Below are positions 9,262-11,690 of a DNA stretch of 64,000 nt, one piece after another. Under the pieces are notes generated by a model that did no database searches, was not told where the DNA came from, and was given only the letters and a program-made list of their open reading frames with translations. The DNA lies in the NCBI GenBank assembly GCA_016125475.1, contig WGLR01000033.1, forward strand, positions 29,688-93,687, written 5' to 3'. The position numbers and the translations under genes are program-made. This stretch comes from Betaproteobacteria bacterium. GTDB taxonomy: Bacteria > Pseudomonadota > Gammaproteobacteria > Burkholderiales > Ga0077523. Positions within the stretch are counted from its first letter, which is position 1; each line of letters begins with the position of its first letter.

Positions 9262-9408
9262 GCGCGTCAGCACCCGCGCGGCGCGTTTCTGGGTCGTACG
9301 CAAACGGTGACGCCGCACATCATCGGCAAATTAATCGGTTGTGGACGTATATCGAAGGCGAGCGGCGAGAGGAATGAGCTAAAATTTGTACATTTTTTGA
9401 CGTTAATA

Positions 9409-9433
9409 TGCAAAACTCCAGTTAATTTTTGCA
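9409..9433. promoter_or_regulatory. Inverted repeat TGCAAAA-N11-TTTTGCA just upstream of the rloA-like gene
   Basis: Perfect 7-bp inverted repeat inside an AT-rich leader, 11 nt before ATG 9445. Confidence 0.4.
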
Positions 9434-9444
9434 ATGGAGCACTT

Positions 9445-10761
9445 ATGTTGCTGGAGTTTCGTGTCCGCAACTTCCGCTCGATCCGCGACGATCAAGCGCT
9501 CAGTTTGGTGGCTGCGGTGGCCGACAAAGAACTCGTCACGACGAATCTAGCGCCCACCGGGCTGAAGTCACTTCCGCACGCGGTGCGCTCGGCCGTTGTG
9601 TTCGGTCCAAACGCGAGCGGCAAGACGACCCTTCTCTTCGCCCTGAACTACATGCGCGCGGTCGTCGCGGAGTCGGCCACAGTGGTCCAGCCAGGTCAGA
9701 CGTTCAACTTGCAACCCTTCCGACTCGATTCGCGCACCGCTACCCAGCCGACAGAATTTGAATTGAGCTTCTTGGTCGACGGCGTCCGCCACCAGTACAA
9801 CTTCGCGATGACGGCCGAACGGGTTGTAAGCGAGCAACTTTTGGTGTGGCGCACGGCCAAACCGACCCAGTGGTTCAACCGCCAATTGAACGAAAGCGGA
9901 GAAGGATACGATTACGAGTTCAGCTCGTATCTGACGGGCCCCCGCAAGCTATGGCAAGACAGCACGCGCCCGAATGCTCTTTTCCTGTCGACGGCCTCCC
10001 AGCTCAATAGCGAACTCCTAGGGCCGATAGCGCGATGGCTGGCACAGAGCGTGATCTACTTGCCGGCTGGCGCGATGGTCGACCATAACTTCTCGACTTC
10101 GCTCCTGCAGACTGCCGGCGGCCGCGCTGCGGTCCGAGACTTTCTGACCACTGCGGACATCTCGATCGCTGACGTTTCTGCCGTCTCTCGCAAAGGGATA
10201 CGCGGAGAATTCCTCCTACAGGCCGGTGGTATAGCTCAGGCCCGTCAGGAAGAAGGCGAGTTCCTGTTTCCGATGTTTGAACATCGCACCGAACACGGCG
10301 CCGCGAAATTCGAACTCCACGAAGAGTCGGAGGGTACCCAACGCCTTTTCAGCCTCGCGGCACCTGTGCTCGATGTGCTGAAGCACGGGCGGATCCTGGT
10401 TGTCGACGAACTGGACCGGAGTCTACACACGCTGCTGGTACGGCGCCTCGTCGGCATGTTCCATGATCCAGCAGTCAATCCGCGCGGCGCCCAGTTGATC
10501 TTCACGACGCACGATGCTTCCCTGCTGGATCACACTTTGTTCCGCCGAGACCAGGTCTGGTTCTCTGAAAAGGACGAGAGCCAAGCGACGCGCGTTTTCC
10601 CCCTCACAGATTTCAGTCCCCGAAAACGCGAAGCCTGGGAACGAGGCTATCTCATGGGACGCTACGGCGCGGTGCCGATATTTCGATCCCTGCCGGAGTC
10701 GGCGACGTCGGTGCCCACACCGCTAGTCCCATCGACCAGTGGTCCGACGGTGACGGCTTAG
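9445..10761 (+). CDS. AAA/ABC-type ATPase, RloA/AbiLi-like (defence-associated family)
   Basis: MLLEFRVRNFRSIRDDQALSLVA, Walker A FGPNASGKTTLL, EESEGTQRLFSLA signature region, Walker B GRILVVDELDRSLHTLL, H motif FTTHDASLLD. Confidence 0.85.
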   Translation: MLLEFRVRNFRSIRDDQALSLVAAVADKELVTTNLAPTGLKSLPHAVRSAVVFGPNASGKTTLLFALNYMRAVVAESATVVQPGQTFNLQPFRLDSRTATQPTEFELSFLVDGVRHQYNFAMTAERVVSEQLLVWRTAKPTQWFNRQLNESGEGYDYEFSSYLTGPRKLWQDSTRPNALFLSTASQLNSELLGPIARWLAQSVIYLPAGAMVDHNFSTSLLQTAGGRAAVRDFLTTADISIADVSAVSRKGIRGEFLLQAGGIAQARQEEGEFLFPMFEHRTEHGAAKFELHEESEGTQRLFSLAAPVLDVLKHGRILVVDELDRSLHTLLVRRLVGMFHDPAVNPRGAQLIFTTHDASLLDHTLFRRDQVWFSEKDESQATRVFPLTDFSPRKREAWERGYLMGRYGAVPIFRSLPESATSVPTPLVPSTSGPTVTA

Positions 10762-10776
10762 CGCCACTCGGCACTC

Positions 10777-11466
10777 GTGGGCAAGGACCGCCAACCGAAA
10801 CACCGGCAAGCCGCCCGGGACCTGCGCCGGCGCGTCGCCCAACGCGTGCCCGCGGACCGCTTGCTCATCGTCTGCGAAGGAGAGAAGACCGAACCCTCAT
10901 ACCTGACGGAGATCCGCCATGAACGCAGACTCCCGTCCGCAAACATACAGGTGCGGCCTACGGCGTACGGCACCGAGCCTCTAAAGGTTGTCGAATATGC
11001 GGAAGTCCTCTTCAGGAAAGGCAACCCTGAACTACGAATTCCTCCGCGCAGCTTCGACCGTGTCGTAGCCGTTTTCGACCGTGACTCGCACCGTACGTAC
11101 CACGCTGCGCTGACCAAGGCAGAAGCGCTAAACGAACGTATGGTGAATGACGAAAACGTCAAGGTTCCGTTCGAAGCGATTGTATCGGTACCGTGCTTTG
11201 AACTGTGGCTTCTGTTGCACTTCGAAGACGTCCTGGCGCCCATCGGACGCGACGAGGTGCACCAGCGTCTGCGTCAGCACCTTCCCGGGTATGCCAAGGG
11301 ACAAGGATCACTCTGGATGGGGACGAAATCTCGGCTCGACGACGCGATAATCCGCGCCGAGGGCCTGATTACGAATGGCCATAGTGCACACGACGGCGAG
11401 TTGCCCTTCACCAATGTGCATGCCCTCGTTCAGCGCCTGCAACATCTGAAAGATCAGGCCGCGTAG
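10777..11466 (+). CDS. RloB-like (AbiLii-like) TOPRIM-type protein
   Basis: Starts 15 nt after the ATPase; LLIVCEGEKTEPSYL, VVAVFDRDSH, FELWLLLHFED are RloB hallmark motifs. Confidence 0.85.
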   Translation: MGKDRQPKHRQAARDLRRRVAQRVPADRLLIVCEGEKTEPSYLTEIRHERRLPSANIQVRPTAYGTEPLKVVEYAEVLFRKGNPELRIPPRSFDRVVAVFDRDSHRTYHAALTKAEALNERMVNDENVKVPFEAIVSVPCFELWLLLHFEDVLAPIGRDEVHQRLRQHLPGYAKGQGSLWMGTKSRLDDAIIRAEGLITNGHSAHDGELPFTNVHALVQRLQHLKDQAA

Positions 11467-11690
11467 CCGCCTATCTCACCGGAGCCCCAGGCGCCTGGGC
11501 GTTCGAGACGAACCAGCCGGGCCACGGATGACTTGTCGATGTGGAACCTGTCGGTGAGACAGACATGTCAGGCCGGCCGAGCGGACCTGAACGCTCAAGC
11601 GCGTGCGCGGCGCGTGGCTCGGTCACGCGACGGGCCCACGAACATTGGGGGCTAGAATCACGCATCGTTCCGCGCACGGAGATCGACACC

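What the first reader, a model, noticed from the sequence alone, without database searches (positions are those of the whole stretch)
9262..11690. RloA/RloB-like (AbiL-like) two-gene cassette lodged between ABC permease and its binding-protein gene
Seen: an AAA/ABC-type ATPase (GPNASGKT, VVDELDRSLH, TTHD) followed 15 nt later by a protein with CEGEKTEP, FDRDS and ELWLLLHFED motifs. The cassette sits between a permease (ends 9261) and an NMT1/THI5-like binding protein (starts 11691), all on the + strand. Established: RloB-type TOPRIM proteins partnered with such ATPases occur in type I R-M loci (RloA/RloB) and in the lactococcal abortive-infection system AbiL, and are architecturally similar to PARIS (AriA/AriB). 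Inference: a mobile anti-phage toxin/ATPase module was inserted into a housekeeping transporter locus.
Basis: partly seen in the sequence, partly recalled or inferred. Interest (0 to 1): 0.85.

Follow-up and report, generated by a model that had tools for sequence, protein, structure and literature searches.

The report
AbiL-type phage-defence gene pair, inserted
Between two genes of an ordinary nutrient transporter sits an inserted pair of genes belonging to AbiL, a known type of bacterial anti-phage system (an ATPase plus a nuclease-like RloB protein); the finding is real but the kind of system is already known.

Summary
Window 9445-10761 encodes a 438-aa AAA_21 ABC-ATPase (PADLOC AbiLi, E=1e-93). 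After 15 nt, 10777-11466 encodes a 229-aa RloB protein (PF13707, E=7e-37; PADLOC AbiLii, E=1.7e-27). The pair lies between a permease (stop 9259-9261) and an NMT1-like binding-protein gene (11691). It is foreign in composition: GC3 0.71/0.68 against a window median of 0.87. It is absent from this site in every relative examined. G002 of the same genus has permease and binding protein 40 bp apart, and the junction can be placed within a shared GCT. G002 carries its own copy of the pair (79/74% identical) elsewhere, near a transposase gene; G011's copy lies near DISARM genes. RloB follows the AbiLi ATPase almost invariably (73 of 76 testable named-genome loci), and the putative catalytic residues E34, D101 and D103 are conserved. 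Best explanation: an AbiL-type defence module whose ATPase restrains, and on infection releases, a Toprim-like nuclease. That mechanism is inferred from published AbiL, NetFlax and PARIS work; a direct fold or profile link of this RloB to Toprim was not significant here. New member of a known kind; low to moderate interest.

The parts
9445..10761 (+). AbiLi-type AAA_21/ABC ATPase (438 aa): Walker A GPNASGKT, Walker B VVDELD, TTHD histidine motif; putative sensor and antitoxin
   Evidence: Pfam AAA_21 1.9e-36, PADLOC AbiLi 9.8e-94, model pLDDT 87 resembling Rad50 and PtuA ATPases
10777..11466 (+). AbiLii/RloB protein (229 aa): CEGE...FDRD...FELWLLLH; putative Toprim-like nuclease effector
   Evidence: PF13707 7e-37, PADLOC AbiLii 1.7e-27, invariant E34, D101, D103, E142, H148 over 54 sequences
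9379..9444 (+). AT-rich leader conserved with the G002 copy (probable cassette promoter and 5' leader)
   Evidence: blastn homology to the G002 copy begins at 9379; leader alignment with G002 and G011. No consensus sigma-70 match was found
8431..9261 (+). ABC transporter permease (left flank), C-terminus HESAR intact
   Evidence: PF00528 2e-25; same C-terminus in the empty-site genome G002
9258..9261 (.). left junction of the insertion, at the permease stop codon
   Evidence: comparison with G002 GAGAGCGCGCGCTAGAATC
11647..11659 (.). right junction (GGGGGCTAGAATC) where similarity to the empty site resumes; contains a possible -10 of the binding-protein gene
   Evidence: CTAAAATC upstream of the same gene in G004
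11691..12686 (+). NMT1/THI5-like substrate-binding protein (right flank)
   Evidence: PF09084 1.2e-25

Best explanation
This is a complete, probably functional AbiL-type two-gene anti-phage module that was inserted between the permease and binding-protein genes of an ABC transporter operon in this lineage. The Rad50/PtuA-like ATPase AbiLi most likely oligomerises, binds the RloB protein AbiLii and keeps it inactive. On sensing phage infection it releases AbiLii, a metal-dependent Toprim-like nuclease (E34 plus D101xD103), which cuts a host or phage nucleic acid and aborts the infection. Shown here: gene identity, pairing, conserved motifs, foreign composition, and absence of the pair at the orthologous site of relatives. 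Inferred: restraint, sensing, nuclease activity and defence.
For: HMM assignments. ATPase and RloB are neighbours in 29 loci of relatives besides the window, with one clear exception, and in 73 of 76 testable named-genome loci. Putative catalytic E34/D101/D103 are invariant over 54 sequences, and Walker A and B residues (G54, N56, G59, K60, D321, E322) over 40. The ATPase model matches Rad50 and the defence ATPases PtuA and retron I-A (E about 1e-11 to 1e-8). The predicted order of strands and helices places E34 after strand 1 and DxD after strand 3, as in Toprim (Toprim topology from general knowledge). Empty site in G002, short gaps in G004, G010 and G021. GC3 0.71/0.68 against 0.87 with SD 0.07. 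The same pair lies near DISARM drmA/drmB/drmM in G011 and near a transposase in G002. Neighbours of other copies include type I, II and III R-M and CBASS-type proteins. Published: an RloB-AAA pair from Clostridium was put through toxicity-neutralisation assays, and AbiLii is named as the toxic effector of AbiL (PMC10440598). The similar architecture PARIS releases a Toprim tRNase (PMC12409363).
Against: A profile comparison of RloB with OLD-type Toprim aligned the right motifs but was not significant (HHalign probability 3%). Foldseek gave no significant Toprim match in the PDB. The nuclease assignment therefore rests on motifs, topology and the published HHpred result. No defence genes flank it in the window. 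Nothing shows expression or activity.
Confidence: 0.8

Rival explanations
1. The pair is a regular accessory of the transporter operon, for example regulating uptake.
For: Same strand as the transporter genes and lying between two of them.
Against: None of the eight same-genus genomes with both flanking genes on one contig has the pair here. Copies elsewhere sit in unrelated contexts (near DISARM genes, a transposase, CbbQ/VWA genes). Codon composition differs.
Confidence: 0.03
2. The pair acts mainly as a self-preserving toxin-antitoxin module with little present anti-phage value to the host.
For: An RloB-AAA pair was tested as toxin and antitoxin (PMC10440598). Relatives occur on plasmids, 15 of 27 matching records being classed mobilizable, and in a Klebsiella phage record.
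Against: AbiL was described as a phage abortive-infection system (Deng 1999, cited in PMC10440598). Copies lie in defence neighbourhoods.
Confidence: 0.12
3. The pair is ancestral at this place and was lost by relatives.
For: Its divergence from the G002 copy (79/74% aa) is similar to that of the flanking transporter proteins (about 73-80%), so the genus may have had the pair for long.
Against: Relatives inside and outside the genus lack it here, G002 has it elsewhere, and composition is atypical.
Confidence: 0.05

Closest known systems
AbiL (AbiLi + AbiLii), Lactococcus lactis plasmid abortive-infection system
   Same: Two adjacent genes, ATPase first, RloB-family protein second; both PADLOC AbiL models hit.
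   Different: Chromosomal-type contig of a proteobacterium (nearest named copies are Burkholderiales). The lactococcal sequences were not compared directly, and phage resistance is untested here.
RloA/RloB of Campylobacter type I R-M loci
   Same: RloB family (PF13707).
   Different: No type I R-M genes next to the cassette.
PARIS (AriA/AriB)
   Same: ABC ATPase plus a separate Toprim-type effector; the generic AAA_21-like AriA model hits.
   Different: The second gene hits no AriB model and is not DUF4435; profile comparison with DUF4435 proteins is negative.
NetFlax D29 (AAA) : D44 (RloB) toxin-antitoxin pairs
   Same: Same family pairing, assayed with a Clostridium algidicarnis pair (PMC10440598).
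   Different: Different phylum; no toxicity test here.
Septu PtuA and retron I-A ATPases
   Same: Predicted ATPase fold matches.
   Different: Their effector is an HNH nuclease, not RloB.

Membership tests
AbiL | AbiLi ATPase | tested here: met
   PDLC02335 E=9.8e-94
AbiL | AbiLii / RloB protein directly downstream | tested here: met
   PDLC02337 E=1.7e-27, PF13707 E=7e-37, 15-nt spacer
AbiL | intact Walker A/B of the ATPase and conserved E/DxD of RloB | tested here: met
AbiL | phage resistance by abortive infection | not testable with these tools
   needs plaque and survival assays
Toprim nuclease fold (RloB) | significant fold or profile match to known Toprim | tested here: inconclusive
   secondary-structure order and motif positions fit; Foldseek PDB has no significant hit; HHalign to OLD-like Toprim 3%
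PARIS | AriB (DUF4435) effector | tested here: not met
   only AbiLii/RloB models hit; HHalign probability 0.1%
RloA/RloB in type I R-M | flanking hsdR/M/S genes | tested here: not met
   seven neighbouring genes without PADLOC hits; both flanks are transporter genes

The most novel reading that the evidence does not exclude
The RloB effector is a Toprim RNase that cuts specific host tRNAs, as AriB does, and the permease/binding-protein junction is a recurrent insertion-tolerant site of this genus (defence pair here; a chemotaxis-receptor gene or a 9-kb block with a caspase-domain gene in relatives).
Probability: 0.3. Interest if true: 0.4.

Novelty: new member of a known kind. Interest (0 to 1): 0.2.

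Why it matters
It adds a clean, junction-level case of an AbiL module inserted into a conserved operon, and shows how tightly RloB is tied to the AbiLi ATPase. The papers found here do not settle the target or trigger of AbiL. This pair, with an empty-site relative, would be a convenient test object, but it is not a new kind of system.

Tried and rejected
Sequence search of RloB and AbiLi against the PDB gave no meaningful match (the top RloB hits are designed helical proteins). Foldseek of RloB against the PDB was not significant, and against viral models it found only an RloB-like phage protein. HHalign against OLD-like Toprim and DUF4435 proteins was inconclusive and negative respectively. 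No target-site duplication beyond GCT, tRNA gene or convincing inverted repeats mark the ends. The two intergenic segments have no second copy in the genome. A sigma-70/terminator scan found nothing. I considered that the gap might be a dedicated defence hotspot: relatives carry a chemotaxis receptor or a 9-kb block there with host-like composition, so it is at most an insertion-tolerant site. The tree places the window copy beside the G002 copy (100/99 support) but could not settle whether the genus acquired the pair once or more often.

Full report
Observation. ORF1 (9445-10761) is AAA_21 at E=1.9e-36 and PADLOC AbiLi at 9.8e-94. ORF2 (10777-11466) is RloB PF13707 at 7e-37 and PADLOC AbiLii at 1.7e-27. 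The flanks are PF00528 and PF09084. The genome (G000, 4.88 Mb) has one copy of RloB.

Foreign composition. GC falls from about 69% to 60% over the cassette. GC3 is 0.71 and 0.68 for the two genes, against a median of 0.87 (SD 0.066) for 41 mechanically chosen ORFs of the window. The permease and binding protein have 0.92 and 0.89.

Empty sites. Permease and binding-protein orthologues were located in relatives. In G002, with the same downstream genes, the permease stop is 40 bp from the binding-protein ATG. G004, G010 and G021 are also contiguous, with about 40-100 bp between the genes depending on the start codon chosen. The G002 sequence GAGAGCGCGCGCTAGAATC equals the window's left end GAGAGCGCGCGCT joined to its right end GCTAGAATC. 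The insertion therefore lies between about 9261 and 11653 and shares GCT at both ends. It leaves the permease C-terminus (HESAR) and the TAGAAT motif before the binding-protein gene intact. G001, G005 and G006 have an antisense chemotaxis receptor in the same gap, and G007 and G008 a block of about 9 kb, all with host-like GC. The site therefore tolerates insertions, but the AbiL pair was seen there only in the window's genome; none of the eight same-genus genomes with both flanking genes on one contig has it there.

Same cassette elsewhere. The G002 copy is 79/74% identical (AbiLi/AbiLii) and lies on another contig, some 300 bp from a DUF772/DDE transposase gene. Nucleotide similarity between the two covers only 9379-11466, that is a 66-bp leader plus the two genes. 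The G011 copy (76/67%) lies a few kb from DISARM-type drmA, drmB and drmM genes, with a LysR regulator directly upstream. The tree pairs the window and G002 copies (100/99 support); copies from Rubrivivax and other Burkholderiales MAGs are next. Identity between window and G002 copies is close to that of the flanking host proteins, so the pair may be old in the genus while its position is not.

Family. RloB occurs in 32 of 387 genomes of the class. Among the loci fetched from that survey and from the order-level relatives, AbiLi stands directly upstream of RloB in 29 besides the window itself, with spacers mostly between -14 and +25 nt. L099 is the one clear exception; L100 and L101 are too short to judge, and in L102 the RloB match was too divergent for the script although an AbiLi homologue ends just upstream. 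Of 76 testable named-genome loci the script scored 69 as adjacent. Four more (L108, L110, L126, L157) failed only because an early RloB start codon makes the frames overlap, giving 73. In L105 the genes are 1.4 kb apart, and L148 and L155 showed no AbiLi (the correction is my reading of the listed coordinates). Relatives are found on 27 plasmid records and in a Klebsiella phage. Neighbours of the named-genome loci include type I, II and III R-M, HerA and CBASS-type proteins (no background rate was measured, so this is descriptive).

Mechanism. AbiLi is modelled well (pLDDT 87) and resembles Rad50 and the defence ATPases PtuA and retron I-A. RloB is modelled well (pLDDT 92). Its strand/helix order puts invariant E34 at the end of strand 1 and D101xD103 at the end of strand 3, as in Toprim nucleases, but no fold or profile match to Toprim was significant. 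Published HHpred work links RloB to OLD_TOPRIM, calls AbiLii the toxic effector of AbiL, and assayed an RloB-AAA pair as toxin and antitoxin (PMC10440598). In PARIS, the ATPase AriA holds and releases the Toprim tRNase AriB (PMC12409363). By analogy, AbiLi restrains AbiLii and releases it on infection. Target and trigger are unknown.

Verdict. The cassette is an AbiL family member by every computable criterion; it is not PARIS and not part of a type I R-M locus. It is a new member of a known kind, with a well-resolved insertion site.

Noticed in passing
L105:4680-5981: A 434-aa ORF without any Pfam match lies between AbiLi and RloB in a Burkholderiales MAG (1.4 kb between the two genes); possible three-gene variant, an insertion, or a mechanical ORF that is no gene.
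   Followed up: partly
L055:1128-10442 and L056:5123-14118: In two same-genus relatives the same permease/binding-protein gap holds about 9 kb with a caspase-domain/Sel1 gene (L055) and a sigma-factor gene (L056), host-like GC.
   Followed up: partly
L052:3261-5416, L053:4069-6324, L054:4992-7244: Three same-genus relatives have a methyl-accepting chemotaxis receptor on the opposite strand in the same gap.
   Followed up: partly
L069:3-5271: DISARM-type drmA, drmB and a cytosine methyltransferase lie a few kb upstream of the G011 copy of the pair.
   Followed up: partly
window 11467-11650: About 180 bp of host-like GC between the end of RloB and the right junction has no second copy in the genome and no recognised origin.
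   Followed up: partly
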